DNA of 64,000 nucleotides from Cupriavidus taiwanensis (lineage in GTDB: Bacteria > Pseudomonadota > Gammaproteobacteria > Burkholderiales > Burkholderiaceae): positions 1,550,941 to 1,614,940 of the forward strand of contig NZ_LT977071.1 of the NCBI RefSeq assembly GCF_900250075.1. The letters are read 5' to 3'. Below are positions 11,433 to 31,839 of the stretch, piece after piece. Within the stretch, counting starts at the first letter, position 1; the number at the start of each line of letters is the position of its first letter. Below the pieces are notes generated by a model, which was given only the letters and a program-made list of their open reading frames with translations, was not told the origin of the DNA and ran no database searches. Made by a program: the position numbers and the translations under genes.

Positions 11433-11450
11433 TGTACAATTGACCCAAAT
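11433..11450 (+). promoter_or_regulatory. TGTAC-N4-GACC operator A (upstream of TetR gene)
   Basis: TGTACAATTGACCCAAAT, the first of seven related sites in this region. The core TGTACAATTGACC is an imperfect dyad centred on CAATTG. It lies 54 bases before the TetR start, where an autoregulatory operator would be expected. Confidence 0.6.
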
Positions 11451-11503
11451 TCTTTCGAAAGCCGGTCAAAAGAGGGCCGTGGAAGTCGATAGCTCAGATA
11501 CCG

Positions 11504-12226
11504 ATGAAAAATTCACCGAGTGCTGCCACAAGCGAGCGGACCAAGCCAGCCGCAGGTAGCGTTCCTGGCGTCATTCGGACCAATACGAGGAAGGCTGGGG
11601 ACGCGACGCGCGATCGCATGCTCGATGCCGCGGAGGCATTGTTTGCAAGGAACGGATACCACGGGACCTCGATGCGGGATGTGGCAGAGGCAACCGATAC
11701 CCGGATTGCTCTGGTTACGTATCACTTTGGCACCAAGGACGTTCTCTTCAACAAGGTTATCGAACGTCGCGCTTCCTATATGGCGCATCAGCGCATTCTC
11801 GCCCTCGATGCAGCACGAACTCGCGCAGGCGACAATCCTGTCCCGCTCGAAGACCTGATTACCGGTTACGTTTATCCGTTCGTGGAACGGAGTTCGCACG
11901 GAGGACAGGGCTGGAAGAACTATTCACTGCTGATCTCTCGCGTCTCCAATTCTCCCGATTGGGCGAAGTTCATCAGCGACCACTATGACCCCATTGCGCG
12001 TCAGTTTGTCGCTGAATTCCGCCGGAGTTTGCCAACAATCCCCGAAGAGGATATCTACCACGCCTTCAGCTTTATGGTTGGCGCGATGGTTGCCCTGGTG
12101 TCGGAACCTGGAAGAGTCGAGAGCCTTTCGCTGCGCAAGTTCAAATCCACCAACCTGGAACAGGCTTTCAAGTGCATGCTCCCGTTCCTGGCCGGCGGTT
12201 TTCGGGCGCTCGTTGACAGATCATGA
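11504..12226 (+). CDS. TetR family transcriptional regulator
   Basis: A 240-aa regulator with a Ser/Thr/Ala-rich 30-residue lead-in, then the TetR helix-turn-helix RMLDAAEALFARNGYHGTSMRDVAEATDTRIALVTYHFGTKDVLF at about residues 38-82. The C-terminal ligand domain is helical and does not match a named effector class. No strong Shine-Dalgarno is visible before the ATG. Codon choice is less GC-biased than in flanking housekeeping genes, a possible sign of transfer. It is the only TetR gene in the region and the best candidate to bind the TGTAC-N4-GACCAA sites. Confidence 0.9.
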   Translation: MKNSPSAATSERTKPAAGSVPGVIRTNTRKAGDATRDRMLDAAEALFARNGYHGTSMRDVAEATDTRIALVTYHFGTKDVLFNKVIERRASYMAHQRILALDAARTRAGDNPVPLEDLITGYVYPFVERSSHGGQGWKNYSLLISRVSNSPDWAKFISDHYDPIARQFVAEFRRSLPTIPEEDIYHAFSFMVGAMVALVSEPGRVESLSLRKFKSTNLEQAFKCMLPFLAGGFRALVDRS

Positions 12227-12338
12227 CCGTCTTGCCTGGCGGGTCCCGCAGGGGCTCTCACCGGGCATCGCTACAGGAAGTTCTGCGAGGCCGCGGTGAG
12301 GGTTCTGCATCAATTTGATATGCAGCGACGCTTGCACG

Positions 12339-13502: not shown

Positions 13503-13604
13503 CCTCTACCTCTACTGTTTCGACAACAAGCCATCAATCTGTGAGTCTGCGCAGTAGCTCCACGGTGAAATCTACGGCGAGCGACAGACAACACACAAAT
13601 TATC

Positions 13605-13624
13605 TGTACAGATGACCAAATTGG
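13605..13624 (+). promoter_or_regulatory. TGTAC-N4-GACCAA operator B (upstream of hydrolase)
   Basis: TGTACAGATGACCAAATTGG, preceded by ATTATC as at 31247. It lies about 100 bases upstream of the alpha/beta hydrolase start. Its orientation points away from the gene, as at 25940 and 31253. Confidence 0.6.
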
Positions 13625-13788
13625 TATACCTAGGGATTACCCGCTGCAGCCAGACAACGCAAAGCCAACTCGTCGAAGTCGAGACCAATGGCCATTCAAT
13701 ATACCGACGAAATCCCGTCGATATCGGCATGGATCCCCGGTTGCATCGCCCCTCAAGGCGGGTCGAACATTGATGAAAATCCGTGTTT

Positions 13789-13805
13789 AATTGGTCATAT
13801 GTACA
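13789..13805 (-). promoter_or_regulatory. TGTAC-N4-GACCAA operator C (apparently orphan)
   Basis: On the minus strand TGTACATATGACCAATT. It points towards operator B from 184 bases away. Only 43 bases separate it from the 3' end of the GMC gene, so no gene starts where a divergent partner would be expected; compare the pair at 25940/26047. Confidence 0.55.
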
Positions 13806-13847
13806 GCTTGCAACTTGCCTGTGTCATCCGAATGGCAGGAATCCGCA

Positions 13848-15518: not shown

Positions 15519-15579
15519 TGCGTTCCAGCCAGGATCAGGCTGCGCGACACGTCGGGTTGCGCAAGCCTTCGTTAAGGGT

Positions 15580-15864
15580 TTATCGATTGTCGACGCGCTT
15601 GTTGAATGCATGGATGCTGACTTGCTGCCAGAGTCCGGCGTGCGCAAACGGGTCATTGGCGTTAAAGGCTACGGCATCCCCCTTGTTCTCTGCCTCCACG
15701 AGGAAGAACGAGCCGATCATGGTTTCACCGTCATCAGCAACGAGTGGACCAGAGATCAGTGTCTTGATGCGGGCCTGTGCAAGATAGGCCTTGTGCGCAT
15801 CGTAGTTCGCCAGGCGCAGGGACAGCGCATCCGGCTTGTCGACGGCATGAATGACGTAGAACAT
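15580..15864 (-). CDS. YciI-like protein
   Basis: A 94-aa YciI/YCII-family protein with a ferredoxin-like fold (MFYVIHAVDKPDALSLR, FLVEAENKGDAVAFNANDPFAHAGLW). The conserved His/Asp positions of the family appear as H7 and the NDPF motif. Relatives are chlorohydroquinone dehydrochlorinase-like enzymes and muconolactone-isomerase-like small proteins of ring-cleavage pathways. It follows the Dabb gene by 12 bases. A role in handling a lactone or in dehydration after ring cleavage is plausible but unproven. Confidence 0.85.
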   Translation of the reverse strand: MFYVIHAVDKPDALSLRLANYDAHKAYLAQARIKTLISGPLVADDGETMIGSFFLVEAENKGDAVAFNANDPFAHAGLWQQVSIHAFNKRVDNR

Positions 15865-15876
15865 TGTTACTTCTCC

Positions 15877-16185
15877 TTAGTTGGCAATGTAATCAACCTG
15901 ATATCGGGCGATCCGCAAGTCACCGAGTTCGCGCTTGACACGCTGGTGCTCAGGGTGGCTTGCATAGTCTTCCAGCGCGCTGCGCGAAGCGAACTCTGTA
16001 TAGAGAACGACATCGCACGCATAATCAACGCGGCTTGAATCCACGCCGATCTCAAGGTGCAGAAGTCCGGGAATCCGGCCGCGCAGGCTCTCGAAGGCGG
16101 ACTTGAGCCGCGCCACCGCGGAACGCTTTTCGCCCTCGCTGTCGCCACGCAGGTTCCACATCACGATGTGCTTGACGATGGTCAC
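15877..16185 (-). CDS. Stress-responsive A/B barrel (Dabb) domain protein
   Basis: A 102-aa single-domain Dabb protein (IVKHIVMWNLRGDSE, PGLLHLEIGVDSS, VLYTEFASRSALEDYASHPEHQRV). Dabb proteins are dimeric alpha/beta barrels that bind or cyclise small aromatic or polyketide-like molecules. Its start overlaps the dioxygenase stop by four bases, so the two are translationally coupled. An accessory role on the ring-cleavage product or its precursor is likely. Confidence 0.88.
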   Translation of the reverse strand: MTIVKHIVMWNLRGDSEGEKRSAVARLKSAFESLRGRIPGLLHLEIGVDSSRVDYACDVVLYTEFASRSALEDYASHPEHQRVKRELGDLRIARYQVDYIAN

Positions 16186-17063
16186 GGCTTCCTCCGCGTC
16201 TGGTCGGTCGCCGGATTCAGTACAAAGTCGAAATCCAGCGTGTAGAACGGCGTAGCCGATTGATCGCCATCCGGCGTCGTGCCGGCCGCATGCTCTACCC
16301 AGTCCGCGATCAGCGAGGACCGCACACCGAACACCGCATCGCTATCCAGATATTCACCGCCCTCCCGGAATACATGCGTGACCAGCGTCTCGTAACCGGG
16401 GGCCGATACCATGAAGTGCAGGTGCGCTGGCCGCCAGGGATGACGCCCCATGGCATCAAGCATCCTGCCAACCGGTCCGTCGTGCGGAATCGGATAGCTT
16501 TCCGCGACGATGGACTTGAAGTGGAAATGTCCGGTCGCGTCGGCTACCAGTGTCCCGCGTCCCTGGACATGCCCTTGCGCGAGCTGGACATCATAGAAGC
16601 CTTCGGAGTCCGCCTGCCACACCTCCAGCTTTGCACCGGGAATCGCTTCGCCAGAAATCCCGCGGACCTGTCCGCTCACGAAGCAGGGTTGTCCGGCCAT
16701 GCCGTTGCCGACGTCCGCGCCAAGCTCGTATTCGGGCGCGTCATCGACATAGAACGGCCCGAATACGGTTGCCTCGGTGCAGCCCTGGGGCTTGCGGTGA
16801 TTCTGCGCGGTGACCAGCGTCGACAAGCCAAGGGTATCGGAAAGCAGGATGAACTCCTGCCGCGTCGGCGAACACGTCTGCCCCACCTCGGTCAGGAACC
16901 GGATGCCGGCGGCCCACTCAGCTTCAGTCAGCCTTGTTTCGCGGGCAAAGGCATGAAGGTGCTGGATCAGGCTGGTCATGATTTCCCGGAGCCTCCTGTC
17001 CTTCATGTCGATGTTGCGCGCCAGTACCGCCTGGGTAATGGTCTCCTCATTGAGGTTGCGCAT
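16182..17063 (-). CDS. Intradiol ring-cleavage dioxygenase, hydroxyquinol 1,2-dioxygenase-like
   Basis: A 293-aa non-haem Fe(III) dioxygenase. It has the helical N-terminal dimerisation domain of catechol/hydroxyquinol dioxygenases (EFILLSDTLGLSTLVTAQNH) and the four iron ligands Tyr157 (EGFYDVQ), Tyr190 (ESYPIPHDGPVG), His214 and His216 (RPAHLHFMV). The YPIPHDGPVG and GCTEATVFGPFYVDDAP blocks fit hydroxyquinol 1,2-dioxygenases, which open 1,2,4-benzenetriol to maleylacetate. A maleylacetate-reductase-like gene at 23729 supports this. It is the fifth gene after the ABC importer genes in one unit. Confidence 0.9.
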   Translation of the reverse strand: MRNLNEETITQAVLARNIDMKDRRLREIMTSLIQHLHAFARETRLTEAEWAAGIRFLTEVGQTCSPTRQEFILLSDTLGLSTLVTAQNHRKPQGCTEATVFGPFYVDDAPEYELGADVGNGMAGQPCFVSGQVRGISGEAIPGAKLEVWQADSEGFYDVQLAQGHVQGRGTLVADATGHFHFKSIVAESYPIPHDGPVGRMLDAMGRHPWRPAHLHFMVSAPGYETLVTHVFREGGEYLDSDAVFGVRSSLIADWVEHAAGTTPDGDQSATPFYTLDFDFVLNPATDQTRRKP

Positions 17064-17099
17064 GATGGTTACTCCTGAGTTGCAAGATAAAAAGGGGGA

Positions 17100-18068
17100 T
17101 CAGGTTTTGCTAACGTCTTCCCAGCTGGGGCAGGTGCGCTTGTCAGCAGGAATATCGAGTGCCTGAAAGTTGGACTTGTCGATCACGGTGGCCGGCAGCA
17201 CGATTTCTTGCCGGACCGGCAGCCCTCGCAATTTGCGGATCGCGGTCATGGTGCCAAGGCAGCCCTGCACAAAGCCGTTGTAGTCGCCGGTCGCCAGCAT
17301 CGTGCCATTCTTGATCGCGTCGATCGCTTCCTTGGTGCCATTGATGCCGGAAACCAGAGCCTTGCGATTGGCGCCTTGCAGCGCCTCGATCGCTCCGATC
17401 GCCATCGCGTCGTTCGCGGCGAAGACCGCGTCAATCTGCGGATATGACTGCATCAGGTTTTCCATCACCTGCAGTGCCTGCAGACGCTGGTAGTTGGCAG
17501 GCTGCGACGCCAGCAGCTTGATGCCTGGGAACGACTTCAGCGCCTCTTTCACCCCGCGCACGCGATCGATGCTGGTGGCGGATCCCTTGACACCTTCCAG
17601 CAGGATCAGGTTGCCCTTGCCGTCCATGACCTTGAACAGATGCGTCGCGGTCTTCAGGCCCAGTTCATAGTCGCTCGCGCCGACGAATGCGACGAAGCTG
17701 CCGGAGTCACTGCGATCCGTCACGTTGACGACCGGGATGTTCGCAGCATTGATCTTCTTCACGCCCGGCCCCATCGCCTTGTAGTCGACCGGGACGAACA
17801 CCACGGCGTCAGCCTTCTTGACGACGACGTCTTCGATCTGGCTCATCTGTTCCGGAATGCTGTCCGGCTTGGTAGGGATGTAGTGCGTAGTTTTTGCATT
17901 CATGCCCTTCGCCGCCGCATCCGCACCCTGCCGCAGCGCCTGGAAGTATGGATTGGTCTGGTTCTTGGTAAAGACCGCAATCCGTTCACCGTCCGCATGC
18001 GCCGCCGTCATGGCGAGCATGCCGAAGCTGGCCAGGGCCGCTAACTGCTTGAGATGTCGGGTATTCAT
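17100..18068 (-). CDS. ABC transporter periplasmic substrate-binding protein (ribose type)
   Basis: A 322-aa solute-binding protein of the RbsB/Peripla_BP_4 class with a signal peptide ending near residue 25 (TAAHA-DGERIAVF). Typical blocks: FTKNQTNPYFQALRQGADAAAK, VPVDYKAMGPGVKKINAANIPVVNV, GVKGSATSIDRVRG, VFAANDAMAIGAIEAL. The class binds pentoses, hexoses, cyclitols and some polyols. It is unusual upstream of a ring-cleavage dioxygenase, which begins 37 bases after its stop. The ligand may be a cyclitol, a glycoside or another polyhydroxylated compound (inference). Confidence 0.92.
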   Translation of the reverse strand: MNTRHLKQLAALASFGMLAMTAAHADGERIAVFTKNQTNPYFQALRQGADAAAKGMNAKTTHYIPTKPDSIPEQMSQIEDVVVKKADAVVFVPVDYKAMGPGVKKINAANIPVVNVTDRSDSGSFVAFVGASDYELGLKTATHLFKVMDGKGNLILLEGVKGSATSIDRVRGVKEALKSFPGIKLLASQPANYQRLQALQVMENLMQSYPQIDAVFAANDAMAIGAIEALQGANRKALVSGINGTKEAIDAIKNGTMLATGDYNGFVQGCLGTMTAIRKLRGLPVRQEIVLPATVIDKSNFQALDIPADKRTCPSWEDVSKT

Positions 18069-18108
18069 GAGATGTCTCCTGCTATCGGGTAAGTATTGGA
18101 ATTGAAGT

Positions 18109-19080
18109 TCAGCGCGTACCGTTGCGGCGACGGGAAATGGTGTCGAGGAATACCGCCAGCACGACGATGACGCCAGTGAGCAGCGGCTGCCAGTTCGCGC
18201 TGATGGTCAGCAGGTTCATGCCATTGAGCACCAGCGTCAGAATGATGGCGCCGATCAGCGTGCCCGAGACCCTGCCCACGCCCCCGAACAGCGACGTCCC
18301 ACCGATCAGCACCGCGGCAATGGCCGGCAAGGTCAGCGCCTCGCCGATATCGCCCTCGGCCGAGTTCAGGCGCGCGAGGAACACCAGGCTTGCAAGCCCT
18401 GCCATGGCACCGCTAACCATATAGACCAGCACCAGGCGCCGCTTGACCGGAACGCCGGACAGGCGCGCGGCGACGGGATTTGCGCCGATTGCATAGATCT
18501 CCTGTCCGAACGTGGTCTTCTGCGATACCGCCATGCCCGCAAACAGGAAGACCAGCATCAGGAATACGGGGATCGGCACCCCCAGCAAGTAGCCGCTGCC
18601 AATGGCACGGAACGCCGGCGAGAATCCGTGAATCGTTTCACCGGCCATGAACCAGTATGTGAGTCCGTGGAGTACCCACAGCATGCCGTAGGTGGCGATA
18701 AACGGTGGAATCCGCAGGGCGGCCACCAGCACGCCATTGGCAAGCCCGATCAGCATGCCGCAGCCAAGGCCGACCCCGACCCCGAGCAGCGTGGAGCCGG
18801 TAGCCTTCATGACACTTGCCGCCAGGCAGGCAGACATTGCGACATTCGCACCAACCGACAGATCGAGTCCCCCGGTCAGGATCACCAGGGTGAGGCCCGA
18901 GGCGAGCAGGAACAGCAGGCTGGCCTGGCGCAGCACATTGAGCAGGTTCCCGGTTGTCAGGAACGCATCCGATGCGATGGCCAGCAAGGCACAGAGCAGG
19001 CCGAGCGCCCCGAGCCGGTACGCGAATGAACGGGCATCGGCGGAAAGCGCAAAGCGCGGCGTGAGCGCGTGGGTGTTCAT
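18109..19080 (-). CDS. ABC transporter permease (RbsC type)
   Basis: A 323-aa inner-membrane permease of the BPD_transp_2 family with eight to ten hydrophobic helices. Characteristic motifs are LTLVILTGGLDLSVGANVAMSACLAA near the N-terminus and AIGANPVAARLSGVPVKRRLVLVYMVSG, the cytoplasmic loop that contacts the ATPase. It overlaps the upstream permease gene by four bases. Together the two permeases form a heterodimeric pore. Confidence 0.92.
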   Translation of the reverse strand: MNTHALTPRFALSADARSFAYRLGALGLLCALLAIASDAFLTTGNLLNVLRQASLLFLLASGLTLVILTGGLDLSVGANVAMSACLAASVMKATGSTLLGVGVGLGCGMLIGLANGVLVAALRIPPFIATYGMLWVLHGLTYWFMAGETIHGFSPAFRAIGSGYLLGVPIPVFLMLVFLFAGMAVSQKTTFGQEIYAIGANPVAARLSGVPVKRRLVLVYMVSGAMAGLASLVFLARLNSAEGDIGEALTLPAIAAVLIGGTSLFGGVGRVSGTLIGAIILTLVLNGMNLLTISANWQPLLTGVIVVLAVFLDTISRRRNGTR

Positions 19081-20084
19081 GCCTTCTCCTTATTCTTGTA
19101 CGACTCGATCAGCAGGACCACGAGGACGAGCAGCCCGATGGCGGCAACTTGCACCGCGGAGGGCACGCCGAGCAGATTGAGCCCGTTGCGCAGCACACCC
19201 ACGGTCAGCACACCGAGAAGCGTGCCGGGCAGCCAGCCATTGCCGCGATCGAAGGTGGTACCACCCACCGCCACCGCCGCGATGGCATCGAACTCGAGCC
19301 CGATGGCAGCGGTCGGATGCCCGGCGTTCATCCGCGCAGTTAGCAGCAATGCTGCGAGACCTGCCATCAGCCCGCCCAGGGCATAGACCGCGATCAGGTA
19401 GCGATTGACGCGAACGCCGGCAAACTTGAGTGCTTCGCGATTGCCACCCAGGGCAAAGACATAAGCTCCGAATCGGGAGCGGTAAAGCAGCCAATGGAAC
19501 AGGCCGTAGCAGGTTGCGGCAATCCAGAGCGGGATCGGGATACCGAGCCACGCGCCGGCATAGATCGCCGGAATCGTGTCGCCGATGCCGACGACGCTCT
19601 GGCCGTCGGTCATCACCAATGCGAACCCTTGCGCCACACCGAGGGTGCCAAGCGTTGCCACGAATGGCGGCATGCCAAGCCACGCAACCAGTCCGCCATT
19701 GAGCAGCCCAAACGCGACGCCCACACCCAGGGCGGCCGCCAGGGCGAGGCCGACCGAACCTGTGCCAATCACAACCGTTGCCAGCACCACGCCGCATAGC
19801 GTCAGCACCGCGCCGATCGAAAGATCGAGTCCCTCCGTCATGATGATCAGCGTCATCGGCAAGGCAACCAGCAGCAAGATCGTGGATTGAGTGCCGACGT
19901 TGAGCAGATTGGCGACACTCAGGAAGCCCTGGCCGGCCACGCTGAACGCGAGCACCAGCAGAAGCAGCACCCAGGCCGAGCCTGGTACGCGCGCCAGCGC
20001 GGGGGTGAGCAAGCTGACAGGCGATGCAGCGGGCGGTCGCGACATGGCGTGCGACAACATTTGGGTATCAGGCGTATCAGACAT
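19077..20084 (-). CDS. ABC transporter permease (RbsC type), second subunit
   Basis: A 335-aa permease paralogous to its neighbour: LPMTLIIMTEGLDLSIGAVLTLCGVV and FALGGNREALKFAGVRVNRYLIAVYALGG. It has a longer N-terminal tail before the first helix. Its start lies inside the end of the ATPase gene (8-base overlap) and its stop overlaps the next permease start, so the importer genes are tightly coupled. Two non-identical permeases are common for AraH/XylH-type importers with unusual substrates. Confidence 0.92.
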   Translation of the reverse strand: MSDTPDTQMLSHAMSRPPAASPVSLLTPALARVPGSAWVLLLLVLAFSVAGQGFLSVANLLNVGTQSTILLLVALPMTLIIMTEGLDLSIGAVLTLCGVVLATVVIGTGSVGLALAAALGVGVAFGLLNGGLVAWLGMPPFVATLGTLGVAQGFALVMTDGQSVVGIGDTIPAIYAGAWLGIPIPLWIAATCYGLFHWLLYRSRFGAYVFALGGNREALKFAGVRVNRYLIAVYALGGLMAGLAALLLTARMNAGHPTAAIGLEFDAIAAVAVGGTTFDRGNGWLPGTLLGVLTVGVLRNGLNLLGVPSAVQVAAIGLLVLVVLLIESYKNKEKA

Positions 20085-21585
20085 CGTTCATCCCCAGTTG
20101 CAGAATGCTTTCCTCACTCATCTGGCCGTGCGCGAGTTCGCCGGCAATCCGGCCTTCCCGCATGACATAGGTGCGGTCGCAGACATTGATGATTTCCGGC
20201 AGCTCGGAACTGATCAGCAGCACCGCAGCGCCTTGCTTCACAAGCCCGTCGATCAGCGCGAAGATCTCGGCCTTGGCGCCGACATCGATGCCGCGAGTCG
20301 GTTCGTCGAAGATAAAGAGGCGCGCCTCGGCAAGCAGCCACTTTCCGATCACGATCTTCTGCTGGTTGCCGCCCGACAGGTTCTGCGCGAGCTGGTCGCC
20401 ATTGGGGGTTGCGATGCGCAGCCGCTCGATCTCCCTGGCGGACATGACCTCCGCCTTGCCATGGCGGTACCACTGCATCGGAAATGCTCGGTTCAGCCCG
20501 GCCAGCAGCAGGTTGTCGCGCACCGAGCGAATCAGCGCCAGACCTTCGGTCTTGCGGCTTTCCGGAATCAACGCCGCGCCGAGCGCCCTTGCCTTTTCGG
20601 GTCCGCCGCGCATTGCCTGGCCAAAGATCCGGATCTCGCCCTCACGGATCGGGTCCGCGCCGAACACCGCGCGCGCGACTTCGCTGCGTCCCGAACCGAC
20701 CAGGCCGGCAAGGCCGACAATCTCTCCTGCGCGCACCTGGAGGCTGACGTTCTCGATGCCATTTCCCGCACTGACGTTGCGCACATCCAGCACCAGCTCG
20801 CCGGGCAGCCCGCCCCGCTCGCGGCAATAGCTCATGTCAACCTTGCGGCCCACCATGCGCGTGACGAGCTCGTCGGGCGTCGCGTCGCCGGGCAGATAGC
20901 TGCCGACCTTGCGGCCATCACGCATCACCGTAATGCGGTCGCCGAGCGCAAACACTTCGGCCATCCGGTGCGAGATATAAATTAGCGATACGCCGTCGGC
21001 CTTCAGCCGGCCGATCACATCGAACAGCCGCTCTGTTTCGCGGTCGGAGAGCGCAGCGGTCGGCTCGTCGAGCACGAGAATGCGCGCATCCTGCGACAGC
21101 GCCTTGGCGATCTCGATCATCTGCTGCTGGGCCACGCCAAGACGATGCACCGGGGTATGGGTGCTCAGATCCATGCCGAGCATGTCGAGCAGGCGACGCG
21201 CCTCGGCGTGCATCCGTTTGTGGTCGACCGAGCCGGGAAGGCGGCCGCGCGGTTCGCGTCCGAGAAAGATGTTCTGCGCGATATCGAGATACGGGACCAG
21301 CGAAAACTCCTGGAAGATCACGGCAATGCCGAGCCGCATCGTATCTGCGGGACCCGACACCTTGACCTGCCTGCCTTCATGGTAGAACTCACCCGCGTCC
21401 GCGGCATAGACGCCGCACAGGACTTTCATCAGTGAGGATTTTCCCGCTCCGTTCTCCCCCAGCAGCATATGCACCTCGCCGGGATAGACCGAGAACGAGA
21501 TATCGTCCAGTGCCCTGACCCCGGGAAAGGTCTTCGAGATGCCACGCATCTCGAACAGCGGTGTGATTTCGTGGATTGTGTTCAT
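20077..21585 (-). CDS. Sugar-type ABC transporter ATP-binding protein (RbsA type)
   Basis: A 502-aa ATPase with two fused nucleotide-binding domains. Domain 1 has Walker A GENGAGKSS (about residue 43), signature LGVAQQQMIEIAKAL and Walker B ILVLDEPTAAL. Domain 2 has the degenerate Walker A GLVGSGRSE, signature LSGGNQQKIVIGKWLL and IFDEPTRGIDVG. This asymmetry is normal for RbsA/XylG. It is the first gene of the eight-gene unit running to 13848. AGGAG lies just before its ATG, and the divergent LysR gene at 21881 is the likely regulator. Confidence 0.93.
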   Translation of the reverse strand: MNTIHEITPLFEMRGISKTFPGVRALDDISFSVYPGEVHMLLGENGAGKSSLMKVLCGVYAADAGEFYHEGRQVKVSGPADTMRLGIAVIFQEFSLVPYLDIAQNIFLGREPRGRLPGSVDHKRMHAEARRLLDMLGMDLSTHTPVHRLGVAQQQMIEIAKALSQDARILVLDEPTAALSDRETERLFDVIGRLKADGVSLIYISHRMAEVFALGDRITVMRDGRKVGSYLPGDATPDELVTRMVGRKVDMSYCRERGGLPGELVLDVRNVSAGNGIENVSLQVRAGEIVGLAGLVGSGRSEVARAVFGADPIREGEIRIFGQAMRGGPEKARALGAALIPESRKTEGLALIRSVRDNLLLAGLNRAFPMQWYRHGKAEVMSAREIERLRIATPNGDQLAQNLSGGNQQKIVIGKWLLAEARLFIFDEPTRGIDVGAKAEIFALIDGLVKQGAAVLLISSELPEIINVCDRTYVMREGRIAGELAHGQMSEESILQLGMNDV

Positions 21586-21880: not shown

Positions 21881-22795
21881 ATGGATCGGTGGACGGAAAT
21901 TGAGTTGTTTGTGCAGACCGCGGAATTGGGAAGCCTCACCAAGGCCGCCGAGAATCTGGAAATGTCGAATGCCGCGGCGAGCCGCCACCTGACCTCGCTC
22001 GAGCGCAGGCTGGCTGCACGCCTGATCGAGCGAAGTACGCGCCGCCTCTACCTGACGCAGGTCGGAGAGCAATTCTTCAGGCGCTGCAAGGACTTGCTTT
22101 CAGAAATGAAGGAAGCAGAGGCCGATGTCAGCGCCAACGTGCTGGAACCGGCCGGCACTCTGACTGTGACGGCATCCCTGTCGTTCTCGATGCTCCACCT
22201 GGCGCCGCTGATTCCGGAATTTACCGAGCGCTATCCGAAAGTCAGCGTGAATATCGTTGCCGCTAATCGCTATTACGACATCATGGATAGCGGTATTGAT
22301 CTCGCCATTCGCACCCGCGAGTTCGAGCCTGATTCCAATCTCACCGTGCGCCGCCTGGCGCAAATGCGCCGCGTGCTGGCGGCATCGCCCCGCTATCTTG
22401 AGCGCAAGGGGATGCCTCGCACCATCGAAGATCTCGCCAGTCATGCCATGCTGATCTATTCCTATGCGAATCGCCCCAACGAACTCACCTTCAGCCGCGA
22501 CGAGGTACAGCAGACCATCAATGTGCGCAGCACGCTGGAATCGAACGACGGTCAGGTACTTCGGGCCGCCGCCCTCAACGGCATGGGCATTCTTGTGCAA
22601 CCGAAGTACATCGTGTACGACGACATCGTCGCCGGACGGCTCGTGCCGGTGCTGGACGACTGGGACCTGCCACGGCTCACCGTCAATATCGCGTTCCAGA
22701 CCCGTACATACTTGCCCGCACGGGTTCGGCTGTTTATCGAGTTCCTGGTGGACCATTTCCACCAGATGGACTACGAACGGAAGTGGACGACCTGA
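21881..22795 (+). CDS. LysR family transcriptional regulator
   Basis: A 304-aa LysR regulator. The N-terminal helix-turn-helix reads FVQTAELGSLTKAAENLEMSNAAASRHLTSLERRLAARLIERSTRRLYLT, and the effector domain has the AaeR/DsdC-like pattern (DLAIRTREFEPDSNLTVRRLA, NGMGILVQPKYIV). GGAG lies eight bases before the ATG. It is divergent from the ABC/dioxygenase operon and convergent with the dehydrogenase gene at 22822, so it most likely activates the ring-cleavage pathway. The inducer is probably the imported substrate or an aromatic intermediate. Confidence 0.92.
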   Translation: MDRWTEIELFVQTAELGSLTKAAENLEMSNAAASRHLTSLERRLAARLIERSTRRLYLTQVGEQFFRRCKDLLSEMKEAEADVSANVLEPAGTLTVTASLSFSMLHLAPLIPEFTERYPKVSVNIVAANRYYDIMDSGIDLAIRTREFEPDSNLTVRRLAQMRRVLAASPRYLERKGMPRTIEDLASHAMLIYSYANRPNELTFSRDEVQQTINVRSTLESNDGQVLRAAALNGMGILVQPKYIVYDDIVAGRLVPVLDDWDLPRLTVNIAFQTRTYLPARVRLFIEFLVDHFHQMDYERKWTT

Positions 22796-22821: not shown

Positions 22822-23694
22822 TTAGCGCTGCGGCACTCCTGCCGCTTGCCCGGCGAACTTGATCACGGCTGCGTAGTCCTCGCCAGCAAAGCCTTGCGCT
22901 GCGGCACCTTGCAGCATCTGGCCCAGCAAAGCGGTCAAGCCCATTGGCACCCGCAGGTCCGCGCCGGCGTCGAGGATCAGGCCGACATCCTTGAGCATCT
23001 GGTCAACGGTAAAGGTCGGCGCGTAGTCGTGCACCGCTAGCTGTGCGGACTTCGCCTTGACAATGGGCGATGCGACCGCACTGGCTGCAATCACTTCCCA
23101 CATGGCCTTCCAGTCGAGCCCCCCCTTCTGGCCAAGCGTCAGCGCTTCCGCGAGCATCCCGGAGGTCAATGCAATCAGCAGGTTGATGACCAGCTTCATC
23201 AGGCGGGCTTGCTCCGCGTCACCGAGATAGAACTGGGTCGGGCCGACCAGCGCGAGCAAGGGCTTGACGTGCTCAAACGCCGCGGCGGGACCGGACACCA
23301 TCGCGGTCAGGTTCGCCGCCTCGGCCATATGGTTGTTGCCCGACACCGTCACCCGCAGGTACGCGATATTGCGTGCCGCCAGGTGCAAGGCCGCGGCAGC
23401 CGAAGCCGCCGGAGAAATCGTGCTGGTGTCTACATAGATGGACCCTGGCGGCGCGCAGGCCGCGACTTCAGCGGATACGGCGGCAAACGCCGCGTCGTGC
23501 GGCATAGAACTGAATATCACCTGCGCCGGTGCGACAGCATCGGCAAGCGATGCCGCAATCGCGAGGCCGGCCTCACGTGCCAGTGCAAGCTGGGCTGAGG
23601 CGATATCGAACGCCACAACCTCATGCCCACCACACGCCATGTGCCGTGCCATCGGCAAGCCCATCTTTCCTGTACCCAGGAACGCTATCCTCAT
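22822..23694 (-). CDS. 3-hydroxyisobutyrate dehydrogenase family NAD(P)-dependent oxidoreductase
   Basis: A 290-aa beta-hydroxyacid dehydrogenase. It starts MRIAFLGTGKMGLPMARHM with the NAD loop GTGKMG at residues 7-12. It has the substrate-binding YVDTSTISP motif and the conserved catalytic Lys in EQARLMKLVINLLIALT. The conserved V-S-G-G stretch reads VTVSGNNHMAEAANLT, so the glycines after VSG are replaced by Asn. The ATG at 23694 has GGAGTGAG upstream. It follows the maleylacetate-reductase-like gene by 34 bases, so the two form a small operon. Its substrate is probably a 3-hydroxyacid or tartronate-semialdehyde-like compound. Confidence 0.88.
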   Translation of the reverse strand: MRIAFLGTGKMGLPMARHMACGGHEVVAFDIASAQLALAREAGLAIAASLADAVAPAQVIFSSMPHDAAFAAVSAEVAACAPPGSIYVDTSTISPAASAAAALHLAARNIAYLRVTVSGNNHMAEAANLTAMVSGPAAAFEHVKPLLALVGPTQFYLGDAEQARLMKLVINLLIALTSGMLAEALTLGQKGGLDWKAMWEVIAASAVASPIVKAKSAQLAVHDYAPTFTVDQMLKDVGLILDAGADLRVPMGLTALLGQMLQGAAAQGFAGEDYAAVIKFAGQAAGVPQR

Positions 23695-23728
23695 GCTCTC
23701 ACTCCATTCTTCTCTGTCGTTCGCGTCG

Positions 23729-25906: not shown

Positions 25907-25939
25907 CGATGTCTCCTTTAGCCAGACCGAATATTACAC

Positions 25940-25957
25940 TGTACAATTGACCAAGTT
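25940..25957 (+). promoter_or_regulatory. TGTAC-N4-GACCAA operator D (upstream of Bug gene)
   Basis: TGTACAATTGACCAAGTT, identical over the core with operator A. It lies 34 bases before the Bug start and is oriented away from it, within the expected promoter. Confidence 0.65.
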
Positions 25958-26046
25958 CAAGGAAGGGTTTCCACCATCATGCTTTAAGCTTTTTTCGCAC
26001 CACAAAGCGCGCAATTGTCCACATCAGCCCGCCCGTCTTTCCATGT

Positions 26047-26063
26047 AACTTGGTCACTCGTAC
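26047..26063 (-). promoter_or_regulatory. TGTAC-N4-GACCAA operator E (upstream of the 245-aa gene)
   Basis: On the minus strand GGTACGAGTGACCAAGTT, one base off the TGTAC core and matching operator D over GACCAAGTT. It lies 34 bases before the start at 26097, mirroring the spacing of operator D to the Bug gene. Confidence 0.55.
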
Positions 26064-26096
26064 CTCTACTGAGCAGCCTCCGAAAAAAAATTTTCG

Positions 26097-26834
26097 ATGA
26101 AAACTAAGATGCATGTCAGCCCGGCAATCCGCACGATCATCAACGGTCGCGAAATCCCTCGCCAGATGGTCCTCGAGTGGGAGCAACGCCGCGCACAGAT
26201 TGTTCTGGGAAAACTGGGCGCCCGCCCTGCCAGCCTCGACCTGGCGGCCATTCGTCGACAATTGCTAGCCCTCAAGCTGGAGCTCGGCGCGGAGGGCTTG
26301 ATGAAGACCTTGCGTCTTGAGTTAGGGATCTCCTCGCCCCTTGCCGAGCTGACGGCTGCCATGTCTCGCGGCTCCCGCCGCTTCTCCGTGACAGAGCTGA
26401 TTGTCTCCGGGGGTACAGCAGAACATTTCGTAGACTGGTTCCAGGCGCGCACGCGGAGCAACGACGAGCTGGCGATGCTGTCGGCCGCACCAGACCACTA
26501 CATGATCCGCACGGGCGCTGGTGGTATTCAAGAAGTCATCGAAACGACTGGAGGCGCGCCATTTTCCACGCGCTTCTTTATCGACTATTCCGACCTGTCG
26601 AGCCTGCGATCCCCGCCAGACCAGGCGTACCCGCACCAGATTGCCGGAGTGGCCAGAAGTGCCAAGGGCACTGCTTTAGGAGGCGTTCGCCATCAATTTC
26701 GCAACGAAGGCCAGGGCTTCAGAGCTAAACTCCTGGTCGAGTTTCCCCTGTTGATCCTGCCGCAAGTCGTTTCGGGCCATCAATGGCACCTGGCAAGTGA
26801 ATTTGGGAATTGGATCGATGCGTGCTTCGCATAA
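26097..26834 (+). CDS. Unrecognised 245-aa protein of the TetR-linked region
   Basis: I do not recognise a family. The first ~110 residues look helical (PRQMVLEWEQRRAQIVLGKLG, LRLELGISSPLAELTAAMSRG). The rest looks beta-rich (HYMIRTGAGGIQEVIETTGG, FSTRFFIDYSDLSSL, RAKLLVEFPLLILPQVV), with several His and Trp near the C-terminus. There is no signal peptide or membrane helix. Instead of a Shine-Dalgarno, a CGAAAA-AAAA-TTTTCG palindrome abuts the ATG. It is divergent from the Bug gene with its own operator, so it is probably co-regulated with it. A ligand-binding or tautomerase/decarboxylase-like role is only a guess. Confidence 0.7.
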   Translation: MKTKMHVSPAIRTIINGREIPRQMVLEWEQRRAQIVLGKLGARPASLDLAAIRRQLLALKLELGAEGLMKTLRLELGISSPLAELTAAMSRGSRRFSVTELIVSGGTAEHFVDWFQARTRSNDELAMLSAAPDHYMIRTGAGGIQEVIETTGGAPFSTRFFIDYSDLSSLRSPPDQAYPHQIAGVARSAKGTALGGVRHQFRNEGQGFRAKLLVEFPLLILPQVVSGHQWHLASEFGNWIDACFA

Positions 26835-27009
26835 TGCAAGGCACTCAACCCTGCACAGACCCGCGCAATGCGCCGAGGGCACAACATCACCGTCGCATGT
26901 ACCAAGGGGGTAGAAACTCGCGGGGCGGGTGCACCTGCCTGGCTTCAGATATGGCTTCGTGCTCACGCGGCCGGCGACAAGACAAAGTTTGCGCGATTGC
27001 GGGGATACC

Positions 27010-28044
27010 TCAAGCCTTTTTCTCGGCGTAGCCGAAGTTGCGGGCGGAGTATCCGGCATAGAAATCCGCGAACGTCAGGTCCGCGTATTTCCTCGGCTGG
27101 TCTTCACTGCAGCAGCTCGGCACGCATGAGATGACAGCATCCAGATTCGGGTAAAGGAAGAAGATGGCCGAATAGCGCTCTTCCCTGGTCGAGGCGACCA
27201 CACGATGCGGGGTAGCGATAAACTGGTCATTGGACCAGGTCCGCAGGGTATCGCCTGTGTTCACCAAAATGCCACCCTCGACGATCGGCTGGTCTATCCA
27301 CGTGCCGGCCGCTGTCAGAATCTGCAGCCCGGGAGCCGTGGCCGGCGGAATCATGGTGAGGAAACTCAAATCCGTGTGACCGGGCAAACCAAACTGGTTT
27401 TCCTCCGGCTTGACCACGGGATAGAAAGCGCTTCGCATCACGGAATCGCTTTTACGGAATGCCTCGTCAAAGAAGTCCGGGGACTGACCCAACGCAACCG
27501 CGACCGGCGCCAGCAGGCGCTTGGCAAGTTCGTTGAACTCCGCGTGATAGCGCAGGAACGCTTGTTTATCTTCTTCGGGCAGGGCTTCCGGCCATTGGTT
27601 ATGCCCACGAAAACGCTTGCTGCCCCGGAAATCCGGGTCCGTCGGCTCAAGTTCCGGACCGAATTTGAATGCCTCCGTGGCTTGTGGCTTTACCACCTTG
27701 TCGAAGCTGTCGCCATGAATGGCGACATTCGGTGCCTGCCAGCCCGACTGGTGCTCGTTCATGCGCACCTTGATTTTTTCGGATGCGGGCAGCGTGAAGA
27801 AACTTTCCATCGCCTTGAACACCCGGTCCACGGTCGCCTGAGATGCACCGTGATTGACGATATAAAAGAAGCCGATCTCGGTACAGGCCTCGCGGATTCG
27901 CTCACCTACATTTGCGAGAGCCCCGGGAACACCCGCGAAGTACGGCCCCACGTCGATAATGGGAATCTCCTCGGTGATGGCCTGCGACTGCTGGCCTCCG
28001 ACATTGACTGAAGTCACTTCCTGCCTGCGAAGAACCTTGTTCAT
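27010..28044 (-). CDS. 2-oxoglutarate/Fe(II)-dependent oxygenase, isopenicillin N synthase-like
   Basis: A 344-aa non-haem oxygenase. It has the DIOX_N domain (IPIIDVGPYFAG, EIGFFYIVNHG) and the 2OG-Fe(II) core with ligands in LPGHTDLSFLTM (His and Asp) and TPHRVVAS (His); the 2OG-binding Arg is probably in REERYSAIFF. Such enzymes hydroxylate or desaturate small molecules. The ATG at 28044 has AGGGA upstream; codons further upstream overlap the CocE gene and look non-coding. It is the last gene of the MFS / CocE / oxygenase operon, 55 bases after the CocE stop. Confidence 0.9.
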   Translation of the reverse strand: MNKVLRRQEVTSVNVGGQQSQAITEEIPIIDVGPYFAGVPGALANVGERIREACTEIGFFYIVNHGASQATVDRVFKAMESFFTLPASEKIKVRMNEHQSGWQAPNVAIHGDSFDKVVKPQATEAFKFGPELEPTDPDFRGSKRFRGHNQWPEALPEEDKQAFLRYHAEFNELAKRLLAPVAVALGQSPDFFDEAFRKSDSVMRSAFYPVVKPEENQFGLPGHTDLSFLTMIPPATAPGLQILTAAGTWIDQPIVEGGILVNTGDTLRTWSNDQFIATPHRVVASTREERYSAIFFLYPNLDAVISCVPSCCSEDQPRKYADLTFADFYAGYSARNFGYAEKKA

Positions 28045-28099
28045 GGGAATCCCTGTATGTAAAGCAAATGAAGCTGGGTTAATCGGTTCGTGACACGCT

Positions 28100-29836
28100 C
28101 TAGCGCTGCGGAACGACGGGCAGCAGGAGATACGGGACCATGTCTTCGCCTGCATGCAGCGTGGTCCGGCCTCCAAAAACGGACGGCGGCCGGTCTTCCG
28201 GATCGTCGTGCAGGAATGGCCCGCACCCCTTCATCGGGAACTTCACGTTCGACAAGTGCGTAGCTGCTCCCGCGTACTCGTAGTCCTTCCCCCGGACAGT
28301 CAAGCTGATGCGCCAGCCGGCAGGTACAACGATGCAGGTGGGCCAGATCTCAACGTCTAGCTCGACCGGCTTTCCCGGCTCAAGCGGCTGCTGCCGCCGG
28401 TGCGCATGGTAGGGGCGCCACGGCAGCGAGCGCGCCGTGTCCAGTTCCCGGTGCGATGCGCGCAACCAGCCCTGGGCCACGGGCGTGTGCGGGTCCAAGG
28501 CCCCCTGGAAGACCACTTCCTTGTCTTGCGGATCGAACAAACCGAGCACCAGAAAGATGTCCGCGTCGGTGGTCGATGAGGACACGAACAGCTTGCAGGC
28601 GAGCGGTCCGGTGATTTCCGTTTCGCCCTCGAACGGCGCGGACATGAAGCGGATGCCGTCCCCCATCGCATCGAAAGTCGCCGAAGCCGGCTCCTCGCTG
28701 CCCTCGCTCGACAGCGACTGGCGCTTCAGGTCCAGGTGCATCCTGGTCCATTGCGTGCGCCCCAGCGGCCATTCGCTTTCCGCGCGTTCGACGAACTTGT
28801 CCACATGGCGCACCTTCAGCAGGATTGGCGGGCGCTTGTTCCAGCCGTTGTCCTCGCCCTTCAGGTAATGGCCAAAGAACTGCTTCTGCAGGCCCACACC
28901 GTAGCGGGTGTAGAACGAAGTCCAGTGCTCCTCACCGTGTATCTCCAGCCATTTCTGCTTCGACCCGGCCTGGACGAAACCCTCCACGTTCCCGCGCAGA
29001 TGCAGCCCCTGCCCTCCCCAGTTGGCGGCGGACAGAACCGGCACCGTGATTTCGTCCAGCCGCGCCCGGCGCCGCGCATAAAAGTCATCGTCAAACCGGT
29101 GGTCATTGGAACGGCCCGATATTTCCGCCCGGTTGGCCTTCAGTTGCGCTTCGCTGAGCGCCTCGTCGCCACACACCAGCTTGCCAGTCACCTTGCTGCG
29201 CGGCGCGCTCTCGCCCCGCCCGTACTGGACGGTCTTGACCTGAATCTCCTGCCAGTTCTTGCCAAACGTGCACAGGATGCCGCCGTGGAACGCTGACTCC
29301 CGGTAGCCGTCGCTGAAGCCCTCCCAGGGGCAGATCGCGGCCAGATGCGGCGGCCGCATCCCCGCGACAACCCATTGGTTGGCCCCGTAGTACGAGATCC
29401 CGTTCAAGCCCACCTTGCCATTCGACCAGGGCTGAACGCCGGCCCATTCGATGCACTGGTAGTAGTCGAGTGCCTCTCGCTCGGAGAAGTGGTCGATGAT
29501 CCCGGGCGAGCGCCCCGCGCCGCGCGAATCCACGCGCACGACGACGTAGCCGTCCGGCACCCATTTTTCCGGGTCGGCTACCTCCCACGCCTGGTAGAGG
29601 TTCGACGAGCCCTCCAGCGCATCCGGGTAACGCGCGGCCATCAGATCCCAGGCGGTCTTGTACCCCTCCTGGAAGGACAGCCCCTTGCCATAGGGGCCAT
29701 AGGTCATGATGACAGGGTACTTGCCCGGCGCAATGGGCCTGTAGACGTCGGCCCGCAGCACGGTGCCATCGTCCATCTCGATCGGTACGTCCCAATCGAT
29801 GGCCATGCCGTCTCTGATTTCCGTTACTTGTGTCAT
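28100..29836 (-). CDS. CocE/NonD family hydrolase
   Basis: A 578-aa serine hydrolase of the X-Pro dipeptidyl-peptidase S15 / cocaine esterase class. The alpha/beta domain contains VRVDSRGAGRSPG (oxyanion region) and the nucleophile Ser148 in GLNGISYYGANQW. His is probably in EIHGEEHWTSFY or a later motif. The C-terminal ~200 residues form the jelly-roll (TGPLACKLFVSSSTTDADIFLVLGLFDP). Members hydrolyse esters or acyl-amino-acid bonds. Its start overlaps the MFS stop by four bases, so it is coupled to the transporter. It probably opens the imported ester or amide. Confidence 0.9.
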   Translation of the reverse strand: MTQVTEIRDGMAIDWDVPIEMDDGTVLRADVYRPIAPGKYPVIMTYGPYGKGLSFQEGYKTAWDLMAARYPDALEGSSNLYQAWEVADPEKWVPDGYVVVRVDSRGAGRSPGIIDHFSEREALDYYQCIEWAGVQPWSNGKVGLNGISYYGANQWVVAGMRPPHLAAICPWEGFSDGYRESAFHGGILCTFGKNWQEIQVKTVQYGRGESAPRSKVTGKLVCGDEALSEAQLKANRAEISGRSNDHRFDDDFYARRRARLDEITVPVLSAANWGGQGLHLRGNVEGFVQAGSKQKWLEIHGEEHWTSFYTRYGVGLQKQFFGHYLKGEDNGWNKRPPILLKVRHVDKFVERAESEWPLGRTQWTRMHLDLKRQSLSSEGSEEPASATFDAMGDGIRFMSAPFEGETEITGPLACKLFVSSSTTDADIFLVLGLFDPQDKEVVFQGALDPHTPVAQGWLRASHRELDTARSLPWRPYHAHRRQQPLEPGKPVELDVEIWPTCIVVPAGWRISLTVRGKDYEYAGAATHLSNVKFPMKGCGPFLHDDPEDRPPSVFGGRTTLHAGEDMVPYLLLPVVPQR

Positions 29837-31179
29837 AGCGCAGATACTCCTTGAACTTGATATTGAAGTTTCGGGCGCCGGGCGGCGAAGACCATGATGA
29901 CGGCCGCGGCGGCATAGAGCGCGACCACCAGGAGCAGGCTGGAGGCGTTGCTGCCCGTCGAGGTTCGCAGCCAGGTGCTGATGGAGGGCGTCACCATCGG
30001 CGCGATGTTGGCGAGCGAACTCACCAGCGCGAGGCCGCTGGCCGCCTGTTCCTTCGGAAGGTACTCGCTGACGAAGGAGAAGAACAACGGTGTCATGGAA
30101 GCCGTGCCGATGGTCGCGATCGAGAGCAGCGCAATTGACTCAGCCACGCCACCGTTCAGCCAGGCGATCCCGAGCAGGCCGGCCGCGATCAGGACCACGC
30201 CGGCCACGAAATGCCATCGCCGCTCGTTGTTCCGGTCGGAGCTGCGGCTCATGAGGATCATGCCGGCGGCGCCGACGATGTTCGGGATCCCTTGCAGCAA
30301 GCCGATGTGAAACACGTCCTGCACACCCCAACTCTGGATCAGAGTCGGTACCCAGAACACCAGTACATAGACCGCGCCGAGGTACAGGAAACAGATGAAC
30401 GAGAGCACATAGACCTTGGGATCGCGCAGCAGCGCCCCAAGAGCGCCCTTGTGGCTGCCTCCACCGGACCCACCGCCCCTGGCAAGTCGATCGGCCAGCA
30501 GCTTCTTCTGCTCGGAGGAGAGCCATTTGGCCTCAGCCGGCCTGTCGCTCAGGCAGAGGTAGCAGAGAAAGCCAATCAGCAGGCAGGGCGCACCATTGAC
30601 AATGAACATCCACTGCCAGCCCTGGTAGCCGAGAAAGCCGTGGCCGAACTTCATCAGCGCGCCGTTGACCGGACCGATGAGGATGCCGGAGACAACCGTG
30701 GAGGTCATGAACACCGCGATGGCCCGGCCGCGCCGGGCCGGCGGGTACCAGTAGGTGAAGTAGAGAACAACGCCGGGAAAGAAGCCCGCCTCGAAAGCGC
30801 CAAGCAGGAAGCGCAGCGTATAGAACTGCCAGGGCTCCGAAACCCAGGCCATGCCGGTAGCACAAGCGCCCCAGCACAGCATGATGCGCAGGATGGTCTT
30901 GCGTGCCCCGATCCTCTCCAGCAGCATGTTGCTCGGCACCTCGAACAGGAGGTAGCCGACGAAGAACATGCCCGCGCCGAGAGCAAAGACCTGATCGCTG
31001 AAATGGAGCTCGCCCTTCATCTGAAGCTGGGCAAAACCGATGTTCACCCGGTCGATGAATGCAAAACAGTAGGCAATCAGCAGCAAGGGCAGGATGTGCC
31101 AGTTGATCTTGGAAAAGAGCGCCTTTTCCTCCGGGCTCTCAACGAGAACGTCGCTTTTCGGAACGGATATTGCTGTCAT
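29833..31179 (-). CDS. MFS transporter, anion:cation symporter (ACS) family
   Basis: A 448-aa twelve-helix importer. Family features are RVNIGFAQLQMKGELHFSDQVFALGAGMFFVGYLLFEVPSNMLLERIGARK and the central loop before YVLSFICFLYLGAVY. ACS transporters take up organic acids, including tartrate, phthalate and hydroxybenzoates. The ATG at 31179 has GTAGGAGC upstream; an in-frame extension to 31308 would run over the operator and lacks membrane character. It is the first gene of the operon with the CocE hydrolase and the 2OG oxygenase. Confidence 0.92.
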   Translation of the reverse strand: MTAISVPKSDVLVESPEEKALFSKINWHILPLLLIAYCFAFIDRVNIGFAQLQMKGELHFSDQVFALGAGMFFVGYLLFEVPSNMLLERIGARKTILRIMLCWGACATGMAWVSEPWQFYTLRFLLGAFEAGFFPGVVLYFTYWYPPARRGRAIAVFMTSTVVSGILIGPVNGALMKFGHGFLGYQGWQWMFIVNGAPCLLIGFLCYLCLSDRPAEAKWLSSEQKKLLADRLARGGGSGGGSHKGALGALLRDPKVYVLSFICFLYLGAVYVLVFWVPTLIQSWGVQDVFHIGLLQGIPNIVGAAGMILMSRSSDRNNERRWHFVAGVVLIAAGLLGIAWLNGGVAESIALLSIATIGTASMTPLFFSFVSEYLPKEQAASGLALVSSLANIAPMVTPSISTWLRTSTGSNASSLLLVVALYAAAAVIMVFAARRPKLQYQVQGVSAL

Positions 31180-31252
31180 GGATAAGCTCCTACCTGGTGT
31201 TCGAGCCCGACCGCGATGGCGCACCGCGTCTCGCACTATGCACGACATTATC

Positions 31253-31270
31253 TGTACACTTGAACAATTA
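31253..31270 (+). promoter_or_regulatory. TGTAC-N4-GAnCAA operator F (upstream of MFS operon)
   Basis: TGTACACTTGAACAATTA, preceded by ATTATC as in operator B. One base in the GACC half differs. It lies 74 bases upstream of the MFS start and is oriented away from it. Confidence 0.55.
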
Positions 31271-31839
31271 GTGTAATCGGAAGAAACCCTGTAGGCATGG
31301 AGCGACATCGGGGAAGCTACGGATGTCAGTGGGCGTTCCGTCGTGTCGACGAATCCCGATCAGCTTAGCGAGCCAAGCTAACGCGAGCTGCACTCACCGA
31401 CGGGGGCCCGGTGTCGAGTGCCACGGGTGAAGGCTATATAGGCTCAGGCGGTCGGCACGTACTCGATGGAATCCCTCTCTTTTTATTGGTCACGAGTACA
31501 GTCTAAAAATTCGGCAAGGCAGGCAGATGCCGGAGATGCAGGTCAGCTCATACCTTTCATGGCGAGTTGGAACTGGCTGAGTTCCTCGGGTCTTGCTGTC
31601 ACCTTGCGTCATACAAGGGACGCGTCTGTCAGCCTTCAACGCACGAATAGATGCGAATGAAGGGGACGCCAAGCCGAGCGAAGAAGGCGAGCGAGCGGTA
31701 TGAACCATGCCGGCGAGAATGCCGCAAGGAACAGCGCAAACGATATCAATCAGCGATCAGAGGCAGCTTGCTCTTCGCGACGAATTCCAAGGCGCGAAAC
31801 CAGCCCTTCGCCCTTGTCCATTCACCTGACCTTTGTGCC
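31271..31839. other. Long intergenic stretch without a convincing gene
   Basis: About 570 bases between the MFS operon promoter and the end of the SDR gene. It holds operator G at 31485 and an A/T-rich patch around it. Frames of 60-70 codons on both strands around 31466-31708 lack recognisable domains and good start signals. By analogy with the Bug/26097 pair, a gene divergent from the MFS operon may once have started near 31530 and decayed (inference). Confidence 0.45.
31485..31500 (-). promoter_or_regulatory. TGTAC-N4-GACCAA operator G (apparently orphan)
   Basis: On the minus strand TGTACTCGTGACCAAT, facing operator F from 215 bases away. No gene starts to its right at the expected distance, as with operator C. 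Confidence 0.55.

What the first reader, a model, noticed from the sequence alone, without database searches (positions are those of the whole stretch)
11433..31500. Seven copies of a TGTAC-N4-GACCAA operator mark a putative undescribed TetR regulon
Seven sites (11433, 13605, 13789, 25940, 26047, 31253, 31485) share TGTAC, four variable bases and GACCAA. They occur only between genes of this region as far as I could read. They precede the TetR gene, an alpha/beta hydrolase, a Bug receptor, an unrecognised 245-aa protein and an MFS / CocE / 2OG-oxygenase operon. Two sites sit exactly 34 bases from the divergent starts at 25906 and 26097. A single TetR gene lies in the region, so these genes probably form one induced pathway.
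Basis: partly seen in the sequence, partly recalled or inferred. Interest (0 to 1): 0.75.

Follow-up and report, generated by a model that had tools for sequence, protein, structure and literature searches.

The report
TetR operators of an aromatic-degradation regulon
Seven copies of one short DNA switch sit in front of genes that probably break down an aromatic compound, and the same switch travels with the same TetR regulator in other bacteria, so it is very likely that regulator's binding site.

Summary
The motif is real: four sites match TGTAC-N4-GACCAA exactly and three have one mismatch, all between genes; the four exact ones are the only exact matches in the 6.77 Mb genome. The TetR assignment, a guess in the finding, now has comparative support: five TetRs of one orthologous group (window, OLGA172 plasmid, G503, G1116, G957) all have close copies of the motif nearby, even where no other tested window gene (OLGA172) and no close LysR or GntR relative is found. 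A sister clade of four TetRs has only diverged or ambiguous sites. The operator is a 16-bp even-centred imperfect palindrome, TTGGTCANNNGTACAG; at 9 of 12 structural-gene promoters TA follows one base on (TANNNT at 7 of 12), so it probably fills the -35/-10 spacer: a repressor site. The genes fit hydroxyquinol catabolism: a maleylacetate reductase lies behind the Bug gene, a hydroxyquinol 1,2-dioxygenase-like gene nearby (without a site). The 245-aa protein models as a relative of phloretin and diacetylphloroglucinol hydrolases. Binding, inducer and substrate are untested. Ordinary mechanism, new regulon: a new member of a known kind.

The parts
11432..11447 (+). operator before tetR (CTGTACAATTGACCCA)
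   Evidence: 1 mismatch to the pattern; 56 bases before the tetR start
11504..12226 (+). TetR regulator, 240 aa, C-terminal domain TetR_C_30
   Evidence: PF00440 and PF17939
12339..13502 (-). 387-aa alpha/beta hydrolase, C-C hydrolase-like
   Evidence: best solved relative 2JBW, 74 bits
13604..13619 (+). operator before the 387-aa hydrolase
   Evidence: exact match
13791..13806 (-). outer operator, inward-facing partner of 13605, no gene of its own seen
   Evidence: exact match
22822..23694 (-). 3-hydroxyisobutyrate-dehydrogenase-like gene, third of the Bug operon (start inferred from the domain)
   Evidence: PF03446, PF14833
23729..24829 (-). maleylacetate reductase, second of the Bug operon
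   Evidence: 3W5S maleylacetate reductase 395 bits; 3JZD 586 bits
24956..25906 (-). Bug-type periplasmic receptor (name from the finding; not scanned against Pfam; no NCBIfam match)
   Evidence: aligns to genes annotated 'tripartite tricarboxylate transporter substrate binding protein' in L052, L053 and L055
25939..25954 (+). operator before the Bug operon, between TTGAAC and TAATAT
   Evidence: exact match
26050..26065 (-). operator before the 245-aa gene
   Evidence: 1 mismatch
26097..26834 (+). 245-aa protein, model like phloretin hydrolase and PhlG
27010..28044 (-). 2OG-Fe(II) oxygenase (start approximate)
   Evidence: PF14226, PF03171
28100..29836 (-). CocE/NonD family hydrolase
   Evidence: TIGR00976 233 bits, cut-off 66.3
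29833..31179 (-). MFS transporter (start at ATG behind AGGAG)
   Evidence: NCBIfam MFS subfamilies, below cut-offs; start
31252..31267 (+). operator before the MFS-CocE-2OG operon
   Evidence: 1 mismatch
31486..31501 (-). outer operator, inward-facing partner of 31253, no gene of its own seen
   Evidence: exact match
16182..17063 (-). hydroxyquinol 1,2-dioxygenase-like gene, same pathway block but no operator found
   Evidence: 1TMX 293 bits

Best explanation
The sites are operators of the TetR protein encoded at 11504-12226. A TetR dimer (inferred) binds the 16-bp pseudo-palindrome TTGGTCANNNGTACAG, which lies where the -35/-10 spacer of the target promoters should be, and so keeps RNA polymerase off tetR itself and four transcription units: the 387-aa hydrolase, Bug-maleylacetate reductase-HIBADH-like, the 245-aa protein, and MFS-CocE-2OG oxygenase. 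A pathway substrate or intermediate, perhaps an acylated polyhydroxybenzene or its product, would release it (inferred). Shown: the sites, their confinement in the genome, their linkage to this TetR across genomes, and their fixed position next to a -10-like box. Inferred: binding, repression, operon limits, inducer.
For: 4 of 4 exact and 7 of 30 near matches of the genome lie in this 20 kb. Motif copies at the loci of 5 of 5 TetRs of this group, including one (OLGA172) sharing only TetR of 17 tested genes. 11 places of 20 bits or more in 241,673 bases of ortholog loci against 0 in 20 resampled sets; 8 of the 11 are in the motif-bearing group, 3 in the sister clade. A 36%-identical TetR in Variovorax VAI-C has a palindromic form of the motif before its gene. 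TA one base behind the operator at 9 of 12 promoters. NicR2, a distant relative (59 bits), is described as a repressor whose sites overlap -35/-10 (PMC6550519, passages).
Against: No binding data. Four sister-clade TetR orthologs lack an exact operator; their best sites are weaker or could belong to LysR. The -35 hexamers at the expected place are mostly poor, 1-4 of 6, and the consensus promoter scans did not find these promoters. In three pairs the outer site has no gene. One exact match in G1116 lies elsewhere in its genome.
Confidence: 0.85

Rival explanations
1. The sites belong to the LysR regulator (21881-22795), as activator sites for the pathway.
For: LysR lies in the block and is conserved (61-65%) in 4 of 9 TetR loci; sites of 21-25 bits lie in the dioxygenase/LysR gap of L032-L034.
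Against: OLGA172 and G1116 have the motif and no LysR relative in 39-41 kb, G503 only a 28% one; the gap before the window's own LysR has no site; even centre and tetR promoter site fit TetR better.
Confidence: 0.06
2. A regulator outside the block, or the nearby GntR-like gene (9004-9696), uses the sites.
For: TTGGT/ACCAA-type half-sites are typical of FCD-type GntR proteins (recalled).
Against: No GntR relative in 9 of 9 TetR loci; the motif tracks TetR; exact matches are confined to the TetR block.
Confidence: 0.06
3. The sites are not regulatory: chance similarity or a small repeat family.
For: Copies are confined to 20 kb of this genome.
Against: 0.07 expected against 7 found; flanks differ between copies; the same motif at the same promoter position in other genomes.
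Confidence: 0.02

Closest known systems
NicR2 of Pseudomonas putida S16 (TetR repressor of nicotine degradation)
   Same: Related TetR (5FHP, 59 bits); represses catabolic operons in its own cluster; binding sites CTATATGTACAGCCATATAA and TTATACCGTCGTACATATAA contain GTACA close to the -10 and overlap -35/-10 (PMC6550519, passages).
   Different: Inverted repeat defined differently in the paper (20 bp with CATATAA half-sites, two dimers); low sequence similarity; other pathway genes.
PsrA-type TetR (TetR_C_30)
   Same: Same C-terminal Pfam domain (103 bits); NCBIfam PsrA model matches at 87 bits.
   Different: Far below the PsrA cut-off of 300 bits; the PsrA operator (recalled) is different.
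Hydroxyquinol pathways (intradiol dioxygenase plus maleylacetate reductase)
   Same: Both enzymes present by sequence.
   Different: Here joined with CocE hydrolase, a 2OG oxygenase, a GMC oxidoreductase, the 387-aa hydrolase and the 245-aa protein; I found no paper with this set in the listings.
ifc isoflavone-catabolism cluster of Variovorax sp. V35
   Same: Also holds an alpha/beta hydrolase similar to 2,6-dihydroxypseudooxynicotine hydrolase (PMC11069340, passages).
   Different: Different key enzymes (IfcA, B, D); disrupting that hydrolase did not affect daidzein degradation there; no shared operator was examined.
PhlG (diacetylphloroglucinol hydrolase) and phloretin hydrolase

Membership tests
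TetR-family transcriptional regulator | TetR_N DNA-binding domain with a TetR-type C-terminal domain | tested here: met
   PF00440 49.8 bits (cut-off 24), PF17939 103.3 bits (cut-off 26.3)
TetR-family transcriptional regulator | Palindromic operator at its own and neighbouring promoters | tested here: met
   sequence only, binding not shown
TetR-family transcriptional regulator | Release from DNA by a small-molecule ligand | not testable with these tools
   needs EMSA or reporter assays
PsrA | Score above the NCBIfam PsrA cut-off | tested here: not met
   87.4 against 300 bits
NicR2 | Close sequence similarity to NicR2 | tested here: not met
   59 bits only; works alike at most
Hydroxyquinol degradation pathway | Hydroxyquinol 1,2-dioxygenase and maleylacetate reductase in the cluster | tested here: met
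   1TMX 293 bits; 3W5S 395 bits; by similarity only
Hydroxyquinol degradation pathway | Activity on hydroxyquinol | not testable with these tools
   needs enzyme assays
PhlG / phloretin hydrolase family (245-aa protein) | Same fold over most of the length | tested here: inconclusive
PhlG / phloretin hydrolase family (245-aa protein) | Recognisable by sequence | tested here: not met
   no PhlG or phloretin hydrolase chain in a profile search of solved structures up to E 10; no such family among the weak Pfam matches
PhlG / phloretin hydrolase family (245-aa protein) | Zinc ligands of the active site | tested here: inconclusive
   H134, E149, H199, H228, H231 and E235 invariant but not superposed on the known ligands; the PhlG ligand pattern H-x3-E is recalled

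The most novel reading that the evidence does not exclude
A TetR lineage with its own spacer-filling operator, laid mostly as inward-facing pairs (7 of 7 pairs in four loci), controls a modular, sporadically distributed pathway for an acylated polyhydroxybenzene; its 245-aa protein, from a family of at least 213 homologs, is a new class of PhlG-like C-C hydrolase that removes the acyl chain before hydroxyquinol cleavage.
Probability: 0.3. Interest if true: 0.55.

Novelty: new member of a known kind. Interest (0 to 1): 0.42.

Why it matters
It turns a by-eye motif into a testable regulon with a named regulator, a precise operator and a predicted promoter mechanism. It offers a natural set of orthologous TetR proteins with kept and with diverged operators for studying specificity. 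It also points to the substrate class of an uncharacterised catabolic cluster and to a possible function for a protein family without a name.

Tried and rejected
A second element upstream of the operators (GGGTTTTCCC / GTGGAAAYCC, about 10 bases upstream) looked promising by eye. With 15 upstream stretches the best 10-base motif had information content 8.57 against at most 8.50 in 60 mononucleotide shuffles, but no unusual clustering in position (7, against mean 6.15 and maximum 9). An earlier run on 17 stretches also beat 15 shuffles, but with more starts for the real data than for the shuffles, so I discount it. The pattern is not enriched in the window. Left as a lead.

Consensus promoter scans found 0, 1, 0 and 1 sites in four regions, not the promoters proposed here.

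The control loci gave 3 places of 20 bits or more in 400,733 bases: one is the VAI-C TetR promoter (L055), two are own-genome places (L007, L061) fetched because they resemble the motif, so that control is biased upwards. The context of L061 was only listed; L007 showed no clear ORF by my filter. In one search one-mismatch matches outside the clusters are common (reversed control 0-5 per genome), so only exact matches are used.

A near DNA search in plasmids found no homologous block (24 records, none covering 80%). TetR searches show rarity: 60% identity or more only in the window genome among 100 relatives and, at E up to 1e-60, 1 of 399 in the order sample, 2 of 101, 3 of 268 and 3 of 399, each count including genomes already known.

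I first labelled the sister clade 'no motif'; its loci hold weaker or ambiguous sites, so 'diverged or unresolved' is the right wording. Two protein correlates (R67 against G/S; T72 against A together with CTGTAC against CTGAAC) rest on one or two events and prove nothing.

Literature: motif strings gave no relevant paper; TetR with hydroxyquinol and maleylacetate reductase gave listings without such a regulon; no open paper with PhlG zinc ligands was found in listings. The library lacks most subscription journals.

Full report
OBSERVATION. TGTAC-N4-GACCAA occurs exactly at 13605+, 13791-, 25940+ and 31486-, and with one mismatch at 11433+, 26050- and 31253+. So four, not seven, sites carry the full string. 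In the whole genome (6.77 Mb, 14 contigs) these four are the only exact matches; 7 of 30 places with up to one mismatch fall in this 20 kb; the reversed control pattern has 23. About 0.07 would be expected by density. An 18-letter form of the motif puts six of the seven sites among the best eight places of the genome (two other places tie at 2 mismatches); the seventh, 26050, is not listed at up to 3 mismatches. In 59 other genomes of the genus the exact pattern occurs only as scattered matches, no two of them close together.

ANATOMY. The sites are intergenic and precede five starts: tetR (56 bases away), the 387-aa hydrolase (102), the Bug receptor (33), the 245-aa protein (32) and the MFS-CocE-2OG operon (about 73, counted from the sequence). 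A hydroxyquinol 1,2-dioxygenase-like gene with a sugar-type ABC transporter (16182-21585), a LysR gene and a GMC oxidoreductase lie in the same block without a site.

WHOSE OPERATOR. A matrix made from the seven window sites alone was run on loci of TetR orthologs found elsewhere. Four orthologs group with the window's TetR: OLGA172 plasmid 64%, G503 62%, G1116 66%, G957 61% by tblastn. All four have close copies: OLGA172 33.8, 23.5 and 20.5 bits; G503 30.9 and 19.0; G1116 32.6, 26.0, 22.8 and 15.6; G957 23.3. On OLGA172 only TetR of the 17 window genes tested was found in 40.7 kb. A GntR relative was found in none of nine TetR loci, a LysR relative of 61% or more in four of nine. A TetR of only 36% identity in Variovorax VAI-C has GAATTAGTACATTTGACCAATTC between it and fahA. 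In 20 first-order resampled sets of the ortholog loci no place reaches 20 bits; the real loci have 11, of which 8 in this group and 3 in the sister clade. Genome-wide, exact matches to CTGWAC-N3-TGANCAAW lie in the TetR cluster in 4 of 4 (window), 2 of 3 (G1116), 1 of 1 (G957) and 1 of 1 (G503) cases; one-mismatch matches elsewhere are common. This is the main evidence that TetR is the binder.

THE SISTER CLADE. Variovorax L031, Achromobacter L032 and L033 and Verticiella L034 have TetR orthologs (58-62%) beside the same pathway genes: 387-aa hydrolase, HIBADH-like and Bug in 4 of 4, GMC, dioxygenase and LysR in 3 of 4 each, CocE and maleylacetate reductase in 2 of 4 each, a 245-aa homolog in 1 of 4, within about 20 kb fetched. 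They form a supported clade (99/100) and none of the four genomes has an exact operator. Before tetR, L031 has TTGGACAGATGAACAG and L034 CTGAACAGACGAACAG, related to the motif; L032 and L033 share another sequence there. Sites of 21-25 bits lie in the gap between dioxygenase and LysR in L032-L034; they fit an even-centred TetR site and also a LysR site. This clade shows that TetR and pathway genes stay together, but for the operator it neither supports nor refutes the assignment; divergence is likely.

MECHANISM. Read in the direction of the target gene, 12 of 12 structural-gene sites have the TTGGTCA-like half upstream and the GTACAG-like half nearest the gene (read by eye); the tetR sites of the window and OLGA172 are the other way round. 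Nine of 12 have TA exactly one base behind the operator and 7 of 12 TANNNT, against 0.29 and 0.08 per offset further downstream. A 16-bp operator plus one base equals a 17-bp promoter spacer, so the operator should fill the space between -35 and -10. At the Bug promoter TTGAAC and TAATAT flank it with an 18-base spacer. The hexamers at the -35 place match TTGACA in only 1 to 4 of 6 positions. A repressor bound there would exclude RNA polymerase, as described for NicR2, whose binding sites overlap -35/-10 (PMC6550519, passages). Sites paired within a gap face inward in 7 of 7 cases (window 3, G1116 2, G503 1, OLGA172 1, pairs defined by eye); 11433, OLGA172 19960, G957 1293 and VAI-C 11911 are single. 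Where genes are divergent, inward facing follows from promoter geometry; at 13791, 31486 and OLGA172 13990 the outer site has no gene that I could see and may be a remnant or serve looping.

VERDICT. It is an ordinary type of system, a local TetR repressor of a catabolic cluster, with an operator and regulon that I did not find described in the papers searched.

Noticed in passing
window 26097-26834: The 'unrecognised' 245-aa protein belongs to a family of at least 213 homologs without a Pfam model; its predicted fold is nearest to phloretin hydrolase and PhlG, with an invariant H-x3-E.
   Followed up: partly
upstream of the operators, e.g. window 13632-13643 and 25965-25974; L068 and L069: A GGGTNNTCCC / GTGGAAAYCC element recurs about 10 bases upstream of many operators; only marginally above shuffles.
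   Followed up: partly
window 11027-11053: Two copies of the same GGGTAATCCC / GGGTTTTCCC type lie side by side before a small minus-strand ORF (about 61 aa) between tetR and an EamA-like transporter.
   Followed up: no
window 9004-9696: A GntR-like regulator ORF lies about 2 kb left of tetR; named by eye, not scanned.
   Followed up: no
L032 16848, L033 16739, L034 19638: Motif-like sites in the dioxygenase/LysR gap of sister-clade loci; whether TetR or LysR uses them is open.
   Followed up: partly
L051, L053, L050 and L054: Distant TetR relatives (29-35%) in Shinella, Variovorax boronicumulans and two Cupriavidus plasmids again lie within about 5 kb of a CocE hydrolase gene, in Shinella also near maleylacetate reductase and an intradiol dioxygenase.
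   Followed up: partly
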